Below are positions 12,144 to 35,469 of a stretch of 64,000 nt of DNA, in pieces. Numbering within the stretch: position 1 is the first letter of the stretch; the number at the start of each line of letters is the position of its first letter. The translations under genes were made by a program, and so were the position numbers. The notes under the pieces were generated by a model. The model saw only the letters and a program-made list of their open reading frames with translations. It had not been told where the DNA came from and did not search any database. Source of the stretch: Pseudomonas putida (GTDB lineage: Bacteria > Pseudomonadota > Gammaproteobacteria > Pseudomonadales > Pseudomonadaceae); contig NZ_JAETZZ010000008.1 in assembly GCF_022627325.1 (NCBI RefSeq), positions 186,001 to 250,000 on the forward strand, written 5' to 3'.

Positions 12144-12240
12144 GATCAGGCCCTTGCAATTGCCCCCGATTATCGCAGGGTTCTCGCGAGAAGAAATGAG
12201 TGAATAGTCCTTCTGCATCATCTCCCCTGTCACACTCGGA

Positions 12241-12624
12241 TTAACGAATGCCGGCGGGGCATGAGGACTGTGGGGGCGACATTGAATTTTCGTTGCCTGG
12301 AACAGCTAGGATCCACCGCCAGCAACCCGTCGCTGGCCAAGCGGTCCACCAATGTCGCTTCCTCACGCACATAGTCGGCCACCTCGTTCTATGGGGAACG
12401 AACACACCACCTATAGACAGGGGCCAGCGGCTCGTAGCGTCATTCCAATACAGCGGGTACACCACCACTCCACCTTGTGCCTCTTCCAGGAACCGCTCAG
12501 TGTCGGGTAGCAAGCCGGCCAGATCAGGCTCCAGAGTGACGCATAAAGCGATTCGCTTCGTTGAACGGTGGCACCCCTGGCGTAGGCACAAAAATTCAGC
12601 GCCTACTCGCTCTTCCGTTTGCAT
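12241..12624 (-). pseudogene. Frameshifted hypothetical gene
   Basis: The N-terminal two thirds reads as a plausible soluble protein (for example LEPDLAGLLPDTERFLEEAQ, then WPLSIGGVFVPHR). After about position 12390 this frame turns into Trp/Arg-rich nonsense. A one-base shift restores sensible protein (NEVADYVREEATLVDRLA, then [10 protein letters not shown]) up to the end. I infer a single-base frameshift in a formerly longer gene. The family is not recognised. Confidence 0.45.
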
Positions 12625-12654
12625 GAACTCCCTCTTTATAAACCTGCCTGCGTG

Positions 12655-12710
12655 CTAGCCCCCAGCTTGGGCGACTGTTGCAATAGCCCTCGTGGCAACT
12701 GGAAAACTTT
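12655..12710 (-). pseudogene. Relic resembling the 3' end of tssM
   Basis: The minus strand encodes FQLPRGLLQQSPKL (codons within 12660-12704), which matches the last residues of the intact TssM at 14173 (FRLPRGLLQQIPKM) at 11 of 14 positions. Similarity is also visible at DNA level over about 45 bp, then fades. It looks like the scar of a partial duplication or displaced tssM end. Confidence 0.5.
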
Positions 12711-12946
12711 ATGAAGTGAAGTACCTCGGCCAACCTTATTGAATAAAAGTAATATCGCTCCGGCTTGAGACTGATTAACCAGCCTCGCCGCTAAGCACGG
12801 TGATAGCGCAAAGCAACTGATCGGCAATTTCAGGCATAAGAAAGAAGACCCTGAATTTTTTGCTCAGCGATAATCACAGTACAAAAGCTGCAACCGTTTT
12901 CAACAGAACCACGGTGCGCACAATACGTATTGTCCATCGACCGCGC

Positions 12947-13190
12947 CTACCTGCAAATTGAATGTTCCCAACCCTTATAATCATCATAGTCAATCACGAT
13001 AACTTCTTTTTCAGGTTTCAGACAAAAGCGCCTGGAAAAACCAGAAACCGAGCTGTATGGATCTGAATAGCGAGCATTTATAAATACTTCGTAGACGGCC
13101 CCAGCGCTTAGCGCTTCTGCATCTTTTTCGCTGATCGCATCATTAGGGAGAACCCCATAACTCAGGCACTCCGAACTAAGCGCCGACTAT
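12947..13190 (-). pseudogene. Startless ORF fragment
   Basis: An open minus-strand frame of about 80 codons without an ATG reads like real protein: GVLPNDAISEKDAEALSAGA, then GFSRRFCLKPEKEVIVIDYD, ending WEHSICR. An in-frame TAG bounds it upstream. Local base composition is AT-richer than the core genome. Probably the 3' end of a lost T6SS-associated gene; family unknown. Confidence 0.4.
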
Positions 13191-13356
13191 TTTGTGCTGA
13201 AGTTTTTGAAGGCTCCAGGCTCAATCAATATGGGTAATTATTCCGACTCGTTATGGTTGTGCGAGGATGTTCTTGGTGAATTTATTAATGATCCGCGATT
13301 GGCGATTCATTTGCCGTAGTTCGGTTATTTGCTCGTCCATTTTTTTGATGGCATGT

Positions 13357-14136
13357 CTAAGTGACGTGCGTGTCTGGATACCCAAGTTGATGCTGCCATA
13401 CATGTGTCATTTCGTGGATAAACCACCACTTAAGCCTAGTCCTTTCGATCGAGAAGTCTTCTTTGAAGTCCGCAGGATGAAAATATATATGACCATTAGG
13501 CGCGATGGCCATTTCCTTGGGATGAAATGCAAAATATTTGTTATTATAGACCCTTACAGACCCATAATTTATTGAGTCCCTGAATAGCAGTCTGGCGAGC
13601 CCAACTTCACCTTCGGTCAATGGTCTATAGCCTTTCTCGACCGTGACATGTTTCTCAGATTGCCCAAATCCTTCTTTAGATGTATGGACACCATTCAAAT
13701 CCACCGAAAGCAAAACTTCTTCTGTATGTCCATCGCCGCAACATGGACTAAGATCCTCTACAAATATCTCAATTTTTTCAAAACCGATAGGTTCTGAACT
13801 CTTAATTCTCTCCGTGCATCCTGCATCATCGGTACAGCCGGAAACGATACGCCCATCCGCCAGTGTAATTATGTATTTACTACCGGCAGGCAGCATTTCA
13901 CCCTCAGAGGTCAGCCTGATTTTTTCATCAAACAGCCTACACTGACACATCCAGCCCAAACCGTGCCGATCAAGTATCTCGCACCCGCTAATAGCTCCAT
14001 TAAAATCTGCACCTACAATAGATTGGCCACTACTGGTTTGGAAGGACAGCTTGTCAAACTCAGTTCCAAACGACTGCTTGAATTTATTAATCACATCGAA
14101 ATATGTAGCGCAGTGACTACCACGTTGTTCACTCAT
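13357..14136 (-). CDS. T6SS-linked 'vgr-related' protein with HExxH motif
   Basis: 259-residue protein starting 36 bp after the tssM stop, with a very strong AGAGGGG ribosome-binding site, so it belongs to the tagO-tssA-tssM transcript. The C-terminal third carries the block typical of proteins annotated 'vgr related': YRPLTEGEVGLARLLF, MAIAPNGHIYFHP and FIHEMTHVWQHQLG, with a zincin-type HExxH (H241, E242, H245). Family members as I remember them continue well beyond this motif; here the protein ends 14 residues after it, and another frame continues (see findings). Eight cysteines cluster in the N-terminal half. Possibly an effector or processing peptidase; possibly truncated. Confidence 0.65.
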   Translation of the reverse strand: MSEQRGSHCATYFDVINKFKQSFGTEFDKLSFQTSSGQSIVGADFNGAISGCEILDRHGLGWMCQCRLFDEKIRLTSEGEMLPAGSKYIITLADGRIVSGCTDDAGCTERIKSSEPIGFEKIEIFVEDLSPCCGDGHTEEVLLSVDLNGVHTSKEGFGQSEKHVTVEKGYRPLTEGEVGLARLLFRDSINYGSVRVYNNKYFAFHPKEMAIAPNGHIYFHPADFKEDFSIERTRLKWWFIHEMTHVWQHQLGYPDTHVT

Positions 14137-14172: not shown

Positions 14173-17100
14173 TCACATGGAAACGTCATGCGCCTGTGCC
14201 ATCTTCGGTATCTGCTGCAACAACCCACGAGGTAACCGAAAACCTTTGAACGGTTCCTGAGTAATGGGGTTGAATGCTTTTTCAGCGTTGAGCCTGTAGC
14301 GCATCACGCCATCGCCGGCCCTGAAGCTCAGGTCCACGCTGGCCGCCGTGCGTCCATTGAGCGAGCCACGGCTGAGCAAGCGGAACATCGACCAGGGGCC
14401 ACGGTATTCAAGGCTGCTGCTGTTGCCGTTCTGCCTCAGCAAGGTCAGGTTGCTGCGCACCTGCTGCCCCAGGGTGTTAGGCCAGACGATGCCGGTGATT
14501 TGGCTCGGGCCATGGGTGTAGGCAATCAGTTGGCCGTCCAGGTCCAGCAAACTTGTACGCTGATTGGCACTCAGGCCCAACGGCTCGATGCTGAACTGCA
14601 CGCTCAGGTTGCCGCGCTGATCGAAGAAGGTCTCACGGATACGGTCTGCCCGTTCCAGCTGTTCGATCACATCGCTACGGATCAGTGAATTCCCCTGATG
14701 GCCCGCTTGCAGGCTTTCGAGGTTTTCCTGCAGGAAGACCTTCAGGTATTGATCATGGAATCGCTGAAGCCGACCCTTCGGGCCAAAGAATGCCTCGAAG
14801 TCGTCCAAGGAGGCATCGGGCGCCCGCACCACGAAGGGGTAGCGCCCGGCCAGGCGCTGCTGGAAGAAGCTATAGACCTCAGCGTCCCAGCGCCGCTCCA
14901 ACTCACGCAGGGCTTCGACATTCAGCACTCGCGCCGTTTGATCGGCGACCTTCCGGACCTGATGGTTGATGGGTTCCGGCAAGCCAGTAGCCACCCGCTG
15001 CAGGGTGCCTATCGGGTCCTGCCCCGTCATCGAGAATCGCTGATGCACGGCCTGCAGCGCCGCCTTGCCTCTGTCAGGGCTATCCTGCACCGACTTGGCA
15101 TAGTCGTGCACGGCCGCGATCGCACCGAGGGTCTCATCGTAATAGCTGGGTTTCTCACCGGCTGCTTGCAGCATGGCACCCAGCCCAGCAAAGGCCCGTT
15201 GAATAGCCAATGCCTGTTGCTGCTCAGGTTTGCTATTTGCAGGCAGCAACGCTTCGGCTTGCGCAAGAGACTCTGCGCCCACGGCCGATGAAAGCGACGT
15301 ATTGTCCTTCACAGCATCCAATAGCCGATGCAGGGGCGCCGCAGGCCCGGTCAGTTGCTGCAGGATCGCGACCCCATGATCCAGATCACGGAAGTCAGCC
15401 ACCGCGAAGGCATTCAAGGCACGCCGCCAGCTGTCAATGAAATCGGCGCTGTACAAGTTACGCAGCCGTTCGCCTAGCGCCTCCCGGTCGGCATCCGAGT
15501 AATCAAGCTGACCGCGCTCACCCAGCGCCCACTGGTCGATCATCGCCATTTCCGCAAACCGCTGACTACGGGGTTCGAAGTACTCTTTGAAGCCTTTGGC
15601 GGTGAGCATGGGTGCTATCAGTACCCCCTCACCCTGCCCGGCGCGAGACGACAGCTGATACACCACATCGAACGCTGGCCCCACCTGATGACGCAGATCC
15701 AAGCCAACATGCAGCTGTTCCCCAGCCTGCTGTTTCAGGCTCGCATAGACTCGCTCTGGCAGGGGAATCTGGCGCAGCGTCTGCTGCACCTCGGCAATGC
15801 GCTGGCTGTACTGCGGCAGATCGGTATCGGCATAGGCCAAGGCATAGTTGAGGTGCCGCATCAGGTCGCGTTGCAGTTGCCCCTGGCCGGGATACTTCTG
15901 TTGCCACTGATGGGCGAACCAGTCCTCGACCCATTCGGGCCGGCGGTTCTGGCGGTCCTCCAGCATTCGATAAACACGAAGAGCAGCCATTTGCTGTTCA
16001 CTGCCAGGTGGTGCAGCGTCCATTGCATCGATCACGCCACTTGCCAGGGCGGGCAAGAAACGCTTGGAAAGCAACGCCAGGTAGGCCTCATCGACGCGGG
16101 GGCCGATGGCGCGCCCCTGGTACAAACCAAGATCGGAAATACCCGGCCACGCATCACGGTAGTTGCCAAACACCGACACGGCATCGCGAATCTGGTCCAG
16201 GGGCTCCAACAGGTTGCGCCCGGAGGGGTCCAGACGCTGGTCCACTTGGTGATGGCTGTACTCACTGCTCTTGGCAAGCACGTTGGCGGCCTTGGCGCCA
16301 TTGATGTCAAAGTAGCGCTGCCAACTGGCGATGGCGACGCAGAAGGCAAGCCCGCCTACTGCAGAACCCACCCACAGCAACCGCCGTTTGCTGCGTGCCA
16401 CTTTGATGTTGTCTCCGGCAAGCCCGGCTTCCTGGTAGATGACACGCCGGAAGGCATGCTGAATGAAATAGACCAGCGCCGGCCCCTGCGACTTGCCCTC
16501 ACGCAGCGGAAAGTCGGTGTTGTAGGGCTGCGCCGCCTCACGCACGAACGCGTTGAGCATGTCGCCCTGCTGCACGACCGAGGACCAGTAAACACCGCGT
16601 ACCAGAGCCGGGGTGGTGAAGCGGTCACTCGCGAGGGCTTCTTTCAAGAAGCCAAGCAGTATCGGACGCAACCCGATCAGCTGCCCATGCAGTGTGAACA
16701 GACGCGAGCGCTGTGCTGCACCGTTCAGGACGTCCAGCCGTTCGACCACCTGTTCGAACAGATCGTTGATCAACCGACGGTAGTGTTCACCATATTCCTC
16801 CAGCCAATCGTCGAACGTGCCGGCAGCCTCCAGCTTGAACGTGAAGCCCAGCATTTTTTCCCGTGTGGCGGCAGGCAGCGCGGCGTATAGCTGGTCAAAA
16901 CCGTCCAGCAGGTCGAATTTGGTCAGCACCACATACACTGGCAGGCGCGATCCCAACTGATTGCTTACCTCATACAACCGCGCGCGCAAGACATGCGCCA
17001 GTGCAACACGGTGCTCAGGTGCCCCCTGCAGCAGAGCAGGCAGGTCGACAACCAGCAAGAGGCCGTTGAGGGCTCTTTGGCTTCGGTTACGCACCAGCCA

Positions 17101-17778
17101 GCCCAACAGGTGTTCCCACAACCTGGCCGAGGTTGCAGGGGGTGGGTTCGATGTTTTCGATGCTTCGGACAACCCCGCCAACGCCCCCTGACGAATGAAG
17201 GCGCCCGGAGGGTCGATGATCACGGCGTCGTCACTGACCCACCAGCCTATCGGGTGTGCCAGTGCTTGCGCCTGTCGGCCCCGAGCTTGTGCTTTGTCGA
17301 TACGGGTCAGGGAAAAGCTTTGTTCAGTACGGTCGATAAAACTGGTCTTGCCGGCCTGTTCGTCACCCACCACCAGATACCAGGGCAGCCGATACAACGC
17401 ACGTCGGCCACCGGCGTTGTCCAGATAACGCGCCAGCCCTTGGTCTAATGCCTTTTCTTGTGCCTGAACGAAGGGCAATACATCGTCCAGCTCAGCGGCC
17501 ACCGCCTGCTGGCGCTGCGCCTGCAGGCGGCGCGAACGCCCGTGCAAGACCACCAGCCAGCAGAGCAGCGGCACCAACACAAGCGTCAGGCTAGCCAGCG
17601 CGCGATGCGCCACGCTCGCCAGCGGCTGCTGCTCGCGCCAGGTCCATTGCGGGCCGAGCCACCAGATCGCAGCCAGTAGCAAGACGGCGCCCAGCCCAAG
17701 CAGCAGCGGCATGGCCAGGCCGACACCCGTCAGCAGCGGCAGGCCCCAACGTTTAAGATGCTTCCACACTCGACTCAT
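14173..17778 (-). CDS. tssM: T6SS membrane complex protein TssM (IcmF)
   Basis: 1201-residue inner-membrane protein that with TssL and TssJ forms the trans-envelope channel of the T6SS. Two membrane segments lie at about residues 15-42 and 60-78, and a third precedes the periplasmic part near residue 430. The cytoplasmic NTPase has an intact Walker A GDEQAGKT (residues 138-145). The C-terminal periplasmic domain, which contacts TssJ, ends in FRLPRGLLQQIPKM. The start at 17778 has GGGAG 5 bp upstream and overlaps the end of tssA by 26 bp, implying translational coupling. Confidence 0.96.
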   Translation of the reverse strand: MSRVWKHLKRWGLPLLTGVGLAMPLLLGLGAVLLLAAIWWLGPQWTWREQQPLASVAHRALASLTLVLVPLLCWLVVLHGRSRRLQAQRQQAVAAELDDVLPFVQAQEKALDQGLARYLDNAGGRRALYRLPWYLVVGDEQAGKTSFIDRTEQSFSLTRIDKAQARGRQAQALAHPIGWWVSDDAVIIDPPGAFIRQGALAGLSEASKTSNPPPATSARLWEHLLGWLVRNRSQRALNGLLLVVDLPALLQGAPEHRVALAHVLRARLYEVSNQLGSRLPVYVVLTKFDLLDGFDQLYAALPAATREKMLGFTFKLEAAGTFDDWLEEYGEHYRRLINDLFEQVVERLDVLNGAAQRSRLFTLHGQLIGLRPILLGFLKEALASDRFTTPALVRGVYWSSVVQQGDMLNAFVREAAQPYNTDFPLREGKSQGPALVYFIQHAFRRVIYQEAGLAGDNIKVARSKRRLLWVGSAVGGLAFCVAIASWQRYFDINGAKAANVLAKSSEYSHHQVDQRLDPSGRNLLEPLDQIRDAVSVFGNYRDAWPGISDLGLYQGRAIGPRVDEAYLALLSKRFLPALASGVIDAMDAAPPGSEQQMAALRVYRMLEDRQNRRPEWVEDWFAHQWQQKYPGQGQLQRDLMRHLNYALAYADTDLPQYSQRIAEVQQTLRQIPLPERVYASLKQQAGEQLHVGLDLRHQVGPAFDVVYQLSSRAGQGEGVLIAPMLTAKGFKEYFEPRSQRFAEMAMIDQWALGERGQLDYSDADREALGERLRNLYSADFIDSWRRALNAFAVADFRDLDHGVAILQQLTGPAAPLHRLLDAVKDNTSLSSAVGAESLAQAEALLPANSKPEQQQALAIQRAFAGLGAMLQAAGEKPSYYDETLGAIAAVHDYAKSVQDSPDRGKAALQAVHQRFSMTGQDPIGTLQRVATGLPEPINHQVRKVADQTARVLNVEALRELERRWDAEVYSFFQQRLAGRYPFVVRAPDASLDDFEAFFGPKGRLQRFHDQYLKVFLQENLESLQAGHQGNSLIRSDVIEQLERADRIRETFFDQRGNLSVQFSIEPLGLSANQRTSLLDLDGQLIAYTHGPSQITGIVWPNTLGQQVRSNLTLLRQNGNSSSLEYRGPWSMFRLLSRGSLNGRTAASVDLSFRAGDGVMRYRLNAEKAFNPITQEPFKGFRLPRGLLQQIPKMAQAHDVSM

Positions 17779-19243
17779 CGTGACTCCCGTTTCTTGTTGC
17801 AATCAGCCCGCGAGGGATGGTGGATGCATACTGCTGAAGGCGTTGAAACACCTCAGGCTCCCAGGCGCTGGCGGAGGTTTCCTGCATCGTTCGAGCAACG
17901 CCTGCGCACAAATCCTGGGCCAGCCAGGACACACCCCGGGCAGCCAACAGATCAGCCGCGATCACGGTGGTATGGCAGCGCTCACGCAAACTACGGAAGT
18001 CCGCCTGCATTCCCTGCAGCCTGAGCAATACCGCTTCAACGCCGCTAGTTTCCAGCTGGCAGGCCAGTTCCTCTCGAAGCGTTGCGAATTCCTGAGAAGC
18101 CGCGCCCGAATCGGACTGCCCTTGTGCACCCCGGAGCCACGCCAGACATTGGTCGTCGACAAATACCCTGCCGTCGCTGAAGCACAGCTGCTGCAGCGCA
18201 GGTATGCGCTGCACGAACCGCGCACTCGCTGCGCGGATAGCCTCAGCCACCTCGCTCATCGCCAGGCGCGTGGCAGCGCTCGCTGCGAGAAAACTGCCAC
18301 GTATCCAGTAGGGACTGGCCGTCACGCTCTTTTCGATCCGCTGGAGGATGGCCACGTCAACTGCAGTGCCGGCGATGGCATCTTCATAGTCCCCGGCGAT
18401 CTCCTGCGGCACCGCCATCAGCTCAGTGCGATGGCCGTGCCTGGTTTCAGGCGCCGTCTGGATGTGGGCCCACAAGCCGAAACGACGCAACTGGTAGCCA
18501 GCAGGATCGTAGGGGTCCTGCTGGTTGATCAGCTCCGCCATGGTGAGCATGGCTCTTCGTGATTCACGCTCGTTGGCGAACGACACACGGGACATTGGCG
18601 TGGCGATGACCTCGGCCAACGACGCAGACTTGCTGCCTTTTGCAGGGGGCTTTTCCGTGGGGGCCTCAGTGAGCCCGTTAGCAAGCTCCATGTGCTTGCG
18701 TAGTAACCGATCCAGCTCGCTCAGGGCCGCTTCTTCGAGCTGCGCTGCATCGCGCTGCTGTTGCAGCCTTTGCAGTGCGCCCTGAGCCGCCGCCGCGTGC
18801 GCGGGGCTGAAGGTCAAGCGATCCAGGCGCGGTAATGCCTCGGCCAAGCGGATCAGTGTCAGGGCAACCAGCTTACGCTTACCGAGAAACCCTTTAGGGC
18901 CCGGTTTAGGATGTGCACTTTCCCAATAGGCTTCGACCATGCCGGCCAACAAGGCCAGGGTAAAACCCCAGTGCTCCCAGCATCGGCTACGTAGCCAAGC
19001 GACACTCAGGTGCGCGACGATGCGATAGTGCTTGCACGCTTGGCCCAAGTACTGGCGGGACGCTTCTTCGATGAATGCCCAATCGATGGAAGGCTCCTGC
19101 AGCCCACCCAGCTTGACCATCTCCTGGTCAATGGCCTGGTAGGTTTCGTCCTCCACGTCGAACAGGCCGGCAGGGTTCTGTGCGTCGATGGGGGCAAGCA
19201 GCCGGGCAATGTTCTGTGCGGTGACCTCTGCTACCAGCGACAT
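17753..19243 (-). CDS. tssA: T6SS protein TssA (ImpA N-terminal domain)
   Basis: 496-residue TssA, the protein that primes and caps the growing sheath. The ImpA_N domain is at residues 10-120 (LAPIDAQNPAGLFDVEDE, then WRSRCWEHWGFTLALLAGMV-like block), and a long variable linker precedes a C-terminal oligomerisation domain. The start overlaps the 3' end of tagO by 13 bp and the 3' end overlaps tssM, so tagO-tssA-tssM form one coupled operon on the minus strand. Confidence 0.93.
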   Translation of the reverse strand: MSLVAEVTAQNIARLLAPIDAQNPAGLFDVEDETYQAIDQEMVKLGGLQEPSIDWAFIEEASRQYLGQACKHYRIVAHLSVAWLRSRCWEHWGFTLALLAGMVEAYWESAHPKPGPKGFLGKRKLVALTLIRLAEALPRLDRLTFSPAHAAAAQGALQRLQQQRDAAQLEEAALSELDRLLRKHMELANGLTEAPTEKPPAKGSKSASLAEVIATPMSRVSFANERESRRAMLTMAELINQQDPYDPAGYQLRRFGLWAHIQTAPETRHGHRTELMAVPQEIAGDYEDAIAGTAVDVAILQRIEKSVTASPYWIRGSFLAASAATRLAMSEVAEAIRAASARFVQRIPALQQLCFSDGRVFVDDQCLAWLRGAQGQSDSGAASQEFATLREELACQLETSGVEAVLLRLQGMQADFRSLRERCHTTVIAADLLAARGVSWLAQDLCAGVARTMQETSASAWEPEVFQRLQQYASTIPRGLIATRNGSHDESSVEAS

Positions 19244-33110: not shown

Positions 33111-33467
33111 ATGGCCGACAACGTAATGGCCCGCCAACAAGGCAAATGGACAGTCGTCAGCATCGCGCCCGATGTTTGCAAAACGCCCATGGGTAGCAGC
33201 ATTCCACCCGTGCCCTACCCCGTTACCGCAGAGCTCGATACCAGCACCGGGGTTGCCCAGAGCGTACGCGCCAATGGCCATCCGGTTGTGATCTACAAAC
33301 GTAGCTTTACACCCAATACCATCGGCGACGCAGCCGGCAAGGCGAAAGGTATAAAGAGCGGCACTGTAGAGGGCAAGTGTCACCCACTGGAGCACAGCAG
33401 TTCCGTGCGTGCCGAGGGGCGTCATTTGGTTCGTCATGGCGACTTGTTCTGGATGAATGGGAGCTGA
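33111..33467 (+). CDS. PAAR-like DUF4150 spike-tip protein
   Basis: 118-residue stand-alone DUF4150/PAAR-like protein: APDVCKTPMGSSIPPVPYPV near the start, a central KRSFTPNTIGDAAGKAKGIK block, and HPLEHSSSVRAEGRHLVRHG near the end. Such proteins sharpen the VgrG spike. In several bacteria the domain is fused to the toxin; here it is a separate gene 4 bp upstream of the effector gene. ATG 33111 follows GGGAGCAGGTGTGAC. Confidence 0.88.
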   Translation: MADNVMARQQGKWTVVSIAPDVCKTPMGSSIPPVPYPVTAELDTSTGVAQSVRANGHPVVIYKRSFTPNTIGDAAGKAKGIKSGTVEGKCHPLEHSSSVRAEGRHLVRHGDLFWMNGS

Positions 33468-33471
33468 TGCC

Positions 33472-34803
33472 ATGACGGATCAGCCCGTGCAACTGGACAC
33501 GCTTCATGTCCAGGTCCAGGAGGTAGCACTACGCAAGCTGCCAGGCGGCCCAGACAGGATGTTCATACAGACTGACGGCACCAGTAAGGTGTTGGTCGAC
33601 TTTGCAGATGGGGTCAGCGAATGGGGCGAGGCCCTTCAGCTTGACGAAGAACGATATGAAGCACTGCGCAAGGAGGCATTTCAGAGAGAACTTGCTGACC
33701 TGCAGGACATACCCACCTACACTGAACTCTACCCTCCCGCAGGCCGCGGTGGCGCTATCACCTCGCCCAATGGCAACACGCTGGGGCGCGTGAACGGTGA
33801 AACGCCTGCAATGGGTAAGGCTGCGAACGACGCCAATGCTGAGGTGGAAAGCGAGACGCCCGCGGAAGGGGTAACGGGCGAACAGGTGCTGGACGGTATT
33901 CAGTTAGGGCTGGATATTGTTGGCTTGATTCCGGTGGTGGGCGAGATCGCCGATGTCGCTAACGCCGGCATCAGCCTATCGCGCGGGGACTATGCGGGTG
34001 CCGCATTGTCGCTGCTTTCGGCTATTCCCTTTGCGGGTTACACAGGCACGGCAGGAAAAATAAGAAGACATGGCGCCAAGGCAGTGGTGGAGGCGTCGGT
34101 CAAGACTTCCAAGGAGGCTGTTGAGCGAACGGCGAGAGGAGCAGCGCAGAAGCGAGCCAGGGAGGCACCTGCACGTAAACAGGCGTCAGGCGGAAAGGTA
34201 CGGCCGAAGAAACTGCAAAAGAAAAAACCAGACTGTTTCGATCCTCGGCAGTCAGACGCCTACAAGAAGATGAGCGAGGCAGACAAGAAAGGGTATCTCA
34301 AAGAGTATGCTCGCCAGATCAAACGGCAGGAGGATTCAATTAACAGCATGTCGGCAAAAGAATTCTCTGATGCAAGGAGAATATTCAACGAAACCAAGCA
34401 AAAAACTGGAAATTCCGGCCGGAATCCTTTAGCAGAAAAAGCGCAGCGCGATTACCGAAGTGACAGACGTAAAGAAATCGAAAAGAGCATATACGAAAGC
34501 AAAAGAAACAAGGGCTTAGAGCCTAAAGTGGCGAAAGCTGAAGCTAAAAAAGAGAGCGGCGCTATCATGGAAAGACTAGCCGCTCTACACGAGCCCGATA
34601 TGATCGCGGGAGGTTGGGCCAAACCTGACCCCAAAGGGTTAGGAGACAAACGTATAAACAGCGCTATTGGTGGAAGTTGGGGACATAAGGCAAGAATTGA
34701 GACAATCGAACGCGCGGCAGAAAGAGCCATAAAGCAGGGCAAAGGTATGGACAGTATGAATGTAGAGCTAACCATTTGCCCTCCAGACAAAAGAAGGAAA
34801 TAA
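33472..34803 (+). CDS. T6SS effector with Ntox15-type nuclease domain
   Basis: 443-residue polymorphic toxin. N-terminal region 1-145 is unassigned. Residues 146-200 are hydrophobic and glycine-rich (GLDIVGLIPVVGEIADVANA, ALSLLSAIPFAGYTG), suggesting a membrane-translocation segment. A Lys/Arg-rich linker follows. The C-terminal domain from about residue 255 (CFDPRQSDAYKK) to the end resembles Ntox15, the DNase domain of Agrobacterium Tde1/Tde2. The catalytic HxxD is H373-EP-D376 in LAALHEPDMIAGG, then GDKRINSAIGGSWGHKA. Base composition becomes AT-richer along the toxin domain, as expected for an exchanged tip. Confidence 0.88.
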   Translation: MTDQPVQLDTLHVQVQEVALRKLPGGPDRMFIQTDGTSKVLVDFADGVSEWGEALQLDEERYEALRKEAFQRELADLQDIPTYTELYPPAGRGGAITSPNGNTLGRVNGETPAMGKAANDANAEVESETPAEGVTGEQVLDGIQLGLDIVGLIPVVGEIADVANAGISLSRGDYAGAALSLLSAIPFAGYTGTAGKIRRHGAKAVVEASVKTSKEAVERTARGAAQKRAREAPARKQASGGKVRPKKLQKKKPDCFDPRQSDAYKKMSEADKKGYLKEYARQIKRQEDSINSMSAKEFSDARRIFNETKQKTGNSGRNPLAEKAQRDYRSDRRKEIEKSIYESKRNKGLEPKVAKAEAKKESGAIMERLAALHEPDMIAGGWAKPDPKGLGDKRINSAIGGSWGHKARIETIERAAERAIKQGKGMDSMNVELTICPPDKRRK

Positions 34804-34806
34804 TTT

Positions 34807-35469
34807 ATGCGAGATTTAGATTTTGCTGAGTTCATCGAGTGCTTTGGAGAAGCCATTCAACAAACCCACGTTCCAGAAGCAAGCATTGCGAAATGGAAGG
34901 ATACACTTCCTCCTCTATTAATCCAATACTGGCAAGATGAGGGGTGGGCAGGATATGGAAACGGAATTTTTTGGACTGTTAACCCTGACGATTACGAACA
35001 TCTTAAAGACGTCTGGCTGAAAGATACACCGATGGAATTTCTTGATAGATTCCACGTCATAGCCAGAAGCGCTTTCGGAAACCTATACTTATGCGGCGAA
35101 AAAACCGGGCATAGTGCATCAGTTATCTGTAACAACAATGAGATACTTGCATTAAAAAGCCGCCTAAAACCTAAAGAGCTGGCAAATCAAAACATGACGA
35201 TACAATCACTATTTGGAACCAGCGAACCCGACGACTATGATAACACCGATTCAAACGGCAAACCTTTATTTGAGCGCGCACTTAAGAAATACGGCCCACT
35301 TGCCGTCGACGAAATGTACGGCTTCGAACACGCCCTTGTGGCAGGAGGGAAGCCCAGCTTGGAAAATCTTCGTAAAGTAAAGCTCGACCCTCACTTGCTA
35401 ATTCTACGTGATCTCGACACTCCGAAACTACCCCTCTCCAATACAGACCTAGAAAAACTGATGAAATAA
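34807..35469 (+). CDS. Tdi1-like immunity protein (GAD-like plus DUF1851)
   Basis: 220-residue soluble protein with an N-terminal GAD-like region (VPEASIAKWKDTLPPLLIQY, GWAGYGNGIFWTVNPDDYEH) and a C-terminal DUF1851-like region (LFERALKKYGPLAVDEMYGF). This domain pair is that of Tdi1, the immunity partner of Ntox15 DNases. It starts 3 bp after the effector stop, and its AAGGAAAT ribosome-binding site lies in the last effector codons, so toxin and antidote are co-expressed. AT-rich like the toxin domain. Confidence 0.88.
   Translation: MRDLDFAEFIECFGEAIQQTHVPEASIAKWKDTLPPLLIQYWQDEGWAGYGNGIFWTVNPDDYEHLKDVWLKDTPMEFLDRFHVIARSAFGNLYLCGEKTGHSASVICNNNEILALKSRLKPKELANQNMTIQSLFGTSEPDDYDNTDSNGKPLFERALKKYGPLAVDEMYGFEHALVAGGKPSLENLRKVKLDPHLLILRDLDTPKLPLSNTDLEKLMK

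What the first reader, a model, noticed from the sequence alone, without database searches (positions are those of the whole stretch)
12655..12710. Scrap of a second tssM 3' end
FQLPRGLLQQSPKL matches the end of the intact TssM (FRLPRGLLQQIPKM) and lies 1.5 kb downstream on the same strand, flanking the HExxH gene and other relics. The cargo between the two copies may have been inserted along with, or flanked by, duplicated tssM sequence.
Basis: seen in the sequence. Interest (0 to 1): 0.5.

Follow-up and report, generated by a model that had tools for sequence, protein, structure and literature searches.

The report
Original tssM tail displaced by effector cassette
The short scrap is the bacterium's original end of a type VI secretion gene, pushed downstream when a toxin-and-immunity cassette arrived carrying its own version of that gene end: a small fossil of how bacteria swap weapons, by a route already known from other species.

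Summary
Window 12636-12710 (-) is a true tssM 3' end (24 codons plus stop). It is not a copy of the intact tssM's end; it is most likely the original end. Its DNA matches the native tssM tails of P. pudica, P. inefficax and P. parafulva at 58-59 of 72 bases, but the intact tail only at 36 of 72. It is followed by the start of the gene that follows tssM in Pseudomonas sp. LB-090624 and P. parafulva. The intact tssM body is mostly closest to P. pudica/P. inefficax, but its last 13 codons, and possibly ~118 bases, look foreign. Between the tails lies a cassette that is intact in a same-species genome (G215): a stand-alone HExxH effector of the VgrG2b C-terminal family (PDB 6h56, E 3e-32) and an overlapping putative lipoprotein immunity gene. 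In the window both are broken. Best explanation: homology-facilitated illegitimate recombination, anchored in the tssM 3' end, with the native tail left as debris. No donor was found. The mechanism has been proposed for T6SS effectors in Vibrio cholerae and P. aeruginosa; unusual here is the anchor, a core apparatus gene.

The parts
14173..17802 (-). tssM, intact, last gene of the minus-strand T6SS operon; body mostly closest to P. pudica / P. inefficax
   Evidence: TIGR03348 VI_IcmF, 920 bits; L017/L018 best or tied best of 23 relatives in 14 of 18 200-bp windows
14173..14290 (-). replaced (foreign) tssM 3' end; well supported for 14173-14214, probable up to 14290
   Evidence: changepoint against P. 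pudica at +27 (21 of 42 versus 113 of 927 differences; 0 of 2000 permutations as strong); 22% versus 11% differences from -49 to +27, p=0.008 uncorrected
13374..14136 (-). first 254 codons of what is in G215 a 349-codon HExxH metallopeptidase effector (VgrG2b C-terminal / Tpe family); C-terminal part broken off
   Evidence: 96% to the G215 protein; G215 protein versus PDB 6h56 E 3.2e-32
13182..13373 (+). 192-bp segment inverted relative to G215, holding the end of the effector and the start of the immunity gene; short stretches on both sides are missing
   Evidence: blastn of window against G215; protein fragments on + strand
12950..13183 (-). C-terminal half of the putative lipoprotein immunity gene
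   Evidence: 96% over 78 codons to the G215 ORF
12711..12949 (-). rest of the insert, without a recognised gene; right junction at 12710/12711
   Evidence: present in G215; no DNA match in the other genomes
12636..12710 (-). displaced native tssM 3' end (the scrap), AAAG... to stop TAA
   Evidence: 58-59 of 72 bases, and 20 of 24 codon positions (22 residues, stop, one beyond), identical to P. pudica, P. inefficax and P. parafulva
12206..12624 (-). relic (frameshifted) of the gene that originally followed tssM, starting MQTEERV
   Evidence: 70% DNA identity from the scrap through 12257 and 84% over 12255-12206 to G081 (= LB-090624), directly after its tssM; protein match in two frames

Best explanation
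The scrap is the resident tssM 3' end, displaced. An incoming DNA fragment carried the 3' end of another lineage's tssM followed by an effector gene and its immunity gene. It paired by homology within the resident tssM 3' end, so tssM stayed whole but gained the donor's tail. Its other end was joined without long homology at the resident tail (position 12710/12711). The last 24 codons of the resident tssM were left stranded behind the cassette, followed by the old next gene. This is homology-facilitated illegitimate recombination. Shown: the two tails differ in origin, the scrap and its flank are native, and the cassette is intact in G215. Inferred: the donor (not found), the recombination pathway, and the antibacterial role of the cassette. 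The event predates the split of the window strain and G215, which share it. Afterwards the effector-immunity pair broke in the window strain, while G215 gained about 17.5 kb between scrap and arfB.
For: Scrap versus native tails 52-59 of 72 bases in five relatives, versus intact tail 36 of 72; the G215 scrap 54-61 of 72 with the same five. Scrap plus flank aligns across the native stop and into the next gene in P. parafulva and LB-090624. Intact tssM body nearest P. pudica/P. inefficax in 14 of 18 windows with an abrupt change at its 3' end. The intact tail past the motif is still tssM-like: 4 of 21 mismatches to the tail in G390 (L084), while 20,000 random window 21-mers came no closer than 5 to any of 39 tails. 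Cassette continuous in G215. Paired motif copies in only 2 of 398 genomes, the same species. Published precedents with the same logic: PMC5361080, PMC11751169.
Against: No donor: besides the window genome and G215, cargo DNA matched only as short patches around the HExxH region, in three of 298 genus genomes (48-136 bases) and two of 398 family genomes (42-50 bases). The left breakpoint is not sharp: over the whole 72 bases the intact tail is no closer to another lineage (at most 44 of 72, and that to P. pudica/P. inefficax themselves). The excess of differences at -49 to +27 is significant only against P. pudica and P. inefficax (p 0.008 and 0.007), not against P. parafulva (0.07), P. wayambapalatensis (0.23) or LB-090624 (0.45), and LB-090624 itself shows a diverged tail without any such cassette (p=0.0025 against P. 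parafulva). Some tail divergence could therefore be ordinary. Microhomology at the right junction cannot be judged without the donor.
Confidence: 0.75

Rival explanations
1. Site-specific integration of a small mobile cassette into the tssM 3' end, which restores the gene with its own 3' end and leaves the old end at the far side (attL/attR-like; shared core AAAGGTTT).
For: The layout (gene with new 3' end, insert, displaced old end) is that of integrases that target gene ends; the intact tail and the G215 scrap share AAAGGTTT.
Against: No recombinase-like ORF in the insert by eye, which is nearly filled by effector and immunity gene; no plasmid match; divergence of the intact gene appears to begin up to 49 bases before the shared string, though that start is uncertain; paired copies seen in one species only.
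Confidence: 0.12
2. Tandem duplication of the tssM 3' end (or target-site duplication) with later divergence.
For: Two copies on the same strand 1.5 kb apart.
Against: The copies share 36 of 72 bases, but the scrap shares 52-59 of 72 with five other species. A duplicate made within this species would resemble its sister copy.
Confidence: 0.03
3. The scrap is the footprint of a second, tandem T6SS cluster that was deleted, not of the present tssM.
For: Such footprints seem to exist: LB-090624 holds an orphan tssM 3' end of 133 codons next to a FAD-type gene (name by eye) of the kind that flanks tssM in 6 of the 24 relatives, with no T6SS gene seen in the 8 kb read.
Against: Needs two clusters of the same lineage side by side and two events; the body of the present tssM and the scrap tail are nearest the same relatives and together make one native gene.
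Confidence: 0.07
4. Chance resemblance of a short peptide.
For: The match inside the window is only 14-16 residues.
Against: DNA-level homology over 65-118 bases to native tssM ends in five species.
Confidence: 0.01

Closest known systems
Sequential displacement of T6SS effector genes in Vibrio cholerae (PMC5361080; passages and section 13 read)
   Same: Proposed: incoming effector-immunity module anchored by homology on one side and joined illegitimately on the other; old 3' material shifted downstream.
   Different: There the anchor is the region upstream of the effector-immunity module (vgrG-3 effector region in the worked example), and what is retained is immunity genes or an effector 3' end. 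Here the anchor is tssM, a membrane-complex gene, and the debris is its 3' end.
[quoted passage not shown] passages read)
   Same: One breakpoint in the 3' end of a structural T6SS gene beside the effector, the other less precise and downstream.
   Different: Dominant breakpoint in vgrG there; tssM here. The displaced 3' end is still readable here.
VgrG2bC-ter-PA0261 (Tpe-Tpi) metallopeptidase effector-immunity family (PMC6899460; passages read)
   Same: HExxH domain (6h56, E 3.2e-32); adjacent ORF with a lipobox-like start (by eye).
   Different: Stand-alone form without the VgrG- or PAAR-like part (named by eye) of other Pseudomonas homologues; broken in the window.
Pseudomonas putida K2/K3 T6SS, group 1.2 (PMC5363822; passages read)
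   Same: Two divergently transcribed core-gene operons.
   Different: Membership not tested by phylogeny; absence of clpV not tested.

Membership tests
TssM/IcmF 3' end (scrap) | DNA homology to tssM 3' ends of relatives including the stop and the following flank | tested here: met
Homology-facilitated illegitimate recombination | one side a homologous crossover, seen as a mosaic of the resident gene | tested here: met
   odd 3' end on a native body; exact breakpoint and donor lineage unresolved
Homology-facilitated illegitimate recombination | other side joined at no or very short homology | tested here: inconclusive
   native homology begins abruptly at 12710; donor sequence unknown
Homology-facilitated illegitimate recombination | uptake of linear donor DNA | not testable with these tools
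   no donor found
Site-specific integrative element | recombinase gene in the insert | tested here: not met
   none by eye among ORFs of the insert in the window (50 aa or more) or G215 (90 aa or more); an integrase acting in trans is not excluded
Tpe-Tpi (VgrG2bC-ter) effector-immunity pair | HExxH metallopeptidase domain of this family | tested here: met
   G215 protein, PDB 6h56, E 3.2e-32, residues 79-296
Tpe-Tpi (VgrG2bC-ter) effector-immunity pair | adjacent immunity gene targeted to the envelope | tested here: inconclusive
   overlapping ORF in G215 with a lipobox-like start read by eye; weak tblastn match about 0.8 kb behind one of the homologues (27% over 90, E 5e-4 in a set of 20 loci, L045); no Pfam, NCBIfam or PDB match
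Tpe-Tpi (VgrG2bC-ter) effector-immunity pair | toxicity in the periplasm relieved by the partner | not testable with these tools
   needs the bench

The most novel reading that the evidence does not exclude
The tssM 3' end, at the edge of this class of T6SS cluster, is a recurrent docking and breakage point: effector cassettes and whole clusters come and go by recombination there and leave tssM 3' tails as footprints. Support: the window species, and an orphan 133-codon tail without a cluster beside it in LB-090624. tssM 3' scraps could then be searched for as markers of past weapon turnover.
Probability: 0.2. Interest if true: 0.45.

Novelty: new member of a known kind. Interest (0 to 1): 0.32.

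Why it matters
It is an unusually readable scar of effector gain. Resident tail, foreign tail, cassette and old neighbour gene can all be assigned, and the polarity (which tail is old) is clear. It suggests that a core membrane-complex gene can serve as the homology anchor for gaining an effector cassette, beyond the vgrG and effector genes in the papers read. It also shows the later fate: effector and immunity gene broke together in one lineage and stay whole in another.

Tried and rejected
Duplication of the intact tail: rejected (36 of 72 bases against 52-59 of 72 with five relatives). Chance peptide: rejected. arfB as the ancestral neighbour of tssM: not found in the relatives checked. Plasmid-borne cargo: no DNA match in 72,556 plasmid records. 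Donor search: apart from the window genome and G215 no cargo DNA in 298 genus genomes or 398 family genomes beyond short patches; effector homologues in 17 other genomes of 398, 31-43% identical, and for the window's piece in 5 other genomes of 95. Donor lineage from the tail: unresolved; past the motif the closest tail is in G390 (4 of 21 mismatches) but tails of all lineages range from 4 to 19, and from -59 to +27 the closest is G392 (11 of 86; P. pudica 16). Paralogous donor inside the genome: the two other IcmF-like genes found in G000 are 29% identical. Pfam and NCBIfam: no family for effector and immunity; Pfam: none for the 12241 relic or for a 70-residue piece of its LB-090624 homologue. 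Terminator or promoter scan of the insert: unremarkable. Literature search for described tssM fragments or duplicates: four papers listed; one read in passages (IS-split tssM in E. coli), three seen in the listing only. Not tested: phylogeny of the T6SS class, clpV absence, structure prediction.

Full report
Observation. On the minus strand at 12704-12639 the sequence reads FQLPRGLLQQSPKLGASTQAGL, then a stop. Against the intact tssM end the DNA aligns as one ungapped 49-base block, score 21, above all of 500 shuffles (maximum 15) and 1,925 other window places (maximum 18). Six of eight mismatches in the nine conserved codons are at third positions. The repeat finder did not report the pair. 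The region occurs once in the window's genome.

Relatives. A scan of genome contigs with TssM gave 24 loci. The scrap with its flank matches, at DNA level, the end of tssM and beyond in P. parafulva (81% over 118 bases), P. pudica (86% over 71), P. inefficax (85% over 71), P. wayambapalatensis (85% over 65) and Pseudomonas sp. LB-090624 (73% over 109). Counted over 72 ungapped bases from the F of FxLPRG, the scrap shares 59, 58, 55, 52 and 59 with P. pudica, P. inefficax, P. wayambapalatensis, LB-090624 and P. parafulva, at most 47 with the other 19 loci, and 36 with the intact tail of the same genome; the G215 scrap shares 61, 60, 57, 54 and 57 with the same five. The intact tail shares at most 44 with any of the 24 loci. 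So the scrap is the native tail and the intact one is odd.

The intact gene is a mosaic. In 200-bp windows its body is best matched, or tied, by P. pudica or P. inefficax in 14 of 18 windows among 23 relatives; other relatives win in the windows at 1000, 2400, 2800 and 3000 (the partial locus L039 was left out). Against P. pudica, differences rise from 97 of 850 bases (-900 to -50 relative to the motif) to 17 of 77 (-49 to +27; p=0.008, uncorrected; P. inefficax 0.007) and 21 of 42 after +27; the best changepoint is at +27 and none of 2,000 permutations reached it. The same test is not significant for the window against P. parafulva (0.07), P. wayambapalatensis (0.23) or LB-090624 (0.45). P. 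pudica against P. inefficax, P. wayambapalatensis and P. parafulva shows no excess (p at least 0.77), but three pairs with LB-090624 give p=0.0025, 0.057 and 0.076, so the left breakpoint is uncertain, between about 14290 and 14214. Beyond the motif the intact tail still resembles a tssM tail, 4 of 21 mismatches to G390 (L084), against 9-11 of 21 for the five native-type relatives; 20,000 random window 21-mers never came closer than 5 to any of 39 tails (that set included the window's own tail, so its 'observed 0' is not used). The donor therefore looks like some tssM lineage, but which one is unresolved, and it was not found.

Gene order. Downstream of the scrap comes ATGCAAACGGAAGAGCG..., also the start of the sequence after tssM in LB-090624 and, slightly changed, P. 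parafulva. In LB-090624 (G081) homology to the window continues from the scrap through 12257 (70%) and over 12255-12206 (84%). The window ORF at 12241-12624 matches it in two frames, a frameshifted relic. arfB is on another contig than tssM in G081 and G117, about 1 Mb away in G057, and was not found in G072.

The cassette. A same-species genome, G215 (one contig), has the same layout: 98.6-98.8% identity on both sides, the scrap and flank at 94% and the cargo at 96-97%. There the effector is one open frame of 349 codons, overlapped by an ORF with a lipobox-like start (read by eye), then the scrap. The effector matches the VgrG2b effector domain, PDB 6h56, E 3.2e-32. Homologues were found in 17 other genomes of 398; several lie at the end of VgrG-like proteins or behind PAAR-like N-termini (named by eye). 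The immunity ORF has no named family. In the window a 192-bp piece spanning the end of the effector and the start of the immunity gene is inverted and short stretches around it are missing, so both are broken. Between the two strains the effector piece has 11 synonymous and 10 replacement codon differences in 254, tssM 27 and 12 in 1,210.

How rare. The motif FxLPRGL[LM]Q as exact DNA was found in 31 of 398 genus genomes, 35 places; the reversed control pattern gave 8. Of the 30 of 35 places that came as loci, 24 are tssM ends, 4 are unrelated and 2 are the scraps. Two copies within 2 kb occur only in the window genome and G215. G081 and G134 have two copies on different contigs. The second in G081 belongs to an orphan tssM 3' end of 133 codons beside a FAD-type gene (by eye) of the kind found behind tssM in 6 of 24 relatives, with no T6SS gene seen in 8 kb.

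Mechanism and comparison. The simplest account is homology-facilitated illegitimate recombination: homology in the tssM 3' end, illegitimate joining at 12710/12711. Kirchberger et al. 2017 propose this for V. cholerae effector-immunity modules, including a shifted 3' end of an old effector (section read). A 2025 P. aeruginosa study reports it with the dominant breakpoint at the 3' end of vgrG (passages read). The experimental case in P. stutzeri is known to me only as cited there. No paper describing tssM as such an anchor was noticed in the listings (20 of 261, 15 of 61, 10 of 11 and 4 of 4 papers listed), few of which were opened; these cover open-licence papers only. The effector family and its immunity are described in PMC6899460 (passages). 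The window's cluster has TssA, TssC, TssG, TssJ, TssK, TssL, TssM and VgrG by Pfam in two divergent operons, as in the K2/K3 clusters of P. putida (passages).

Verdict. A genuine and informative scar, ordinary in kind.

Noticed in passing
L119:3619-4017 (G081:C22, Pseudomonas sp. LB-090624): Orphan tssM 3' end of 133 codons beside a FAD-type gene (by eye) like that flanking tssM in 6 of 24 relatives, no T6SS genes seen in the 8 kb read: looks like a footprint of a lost cluster.
   Followed up: partly
L120:1272-1382 (G081:C87): A 37-residue tssM-like relic (residues 974-1010; stops in the match), about 8 kb from another IcmF-type gene.
   Followed up: no
L041/L042, G215:C1:3704231-3721763: About 17.5 kb, mostly metabolic, transport and regulator-like ORFs (by eye), between the scrap's flank and arfB in the same-species genome, in place of about 394 bp present in the window.
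   Followed up: partly
window 13182-13373: 192-bp inversion with missing stretches on both sides broke effector and immunity gene together.
   Followed up: yes
window 33457-35469: Ntox15 toxin-domain protein with adjacent GAD-like/Tdi1-type immunity protein, downstream of VgrG and a DUF2169 protein in the same T6SS region.
   Followed up: no
window 14176-14241: The C-terminal 22 residues of TssM give a sub-threshold Pfam hit to the Arc-like DNA-binding domain (19.9 bits, cut-off 20.4); probably chance.
   Followed up: no
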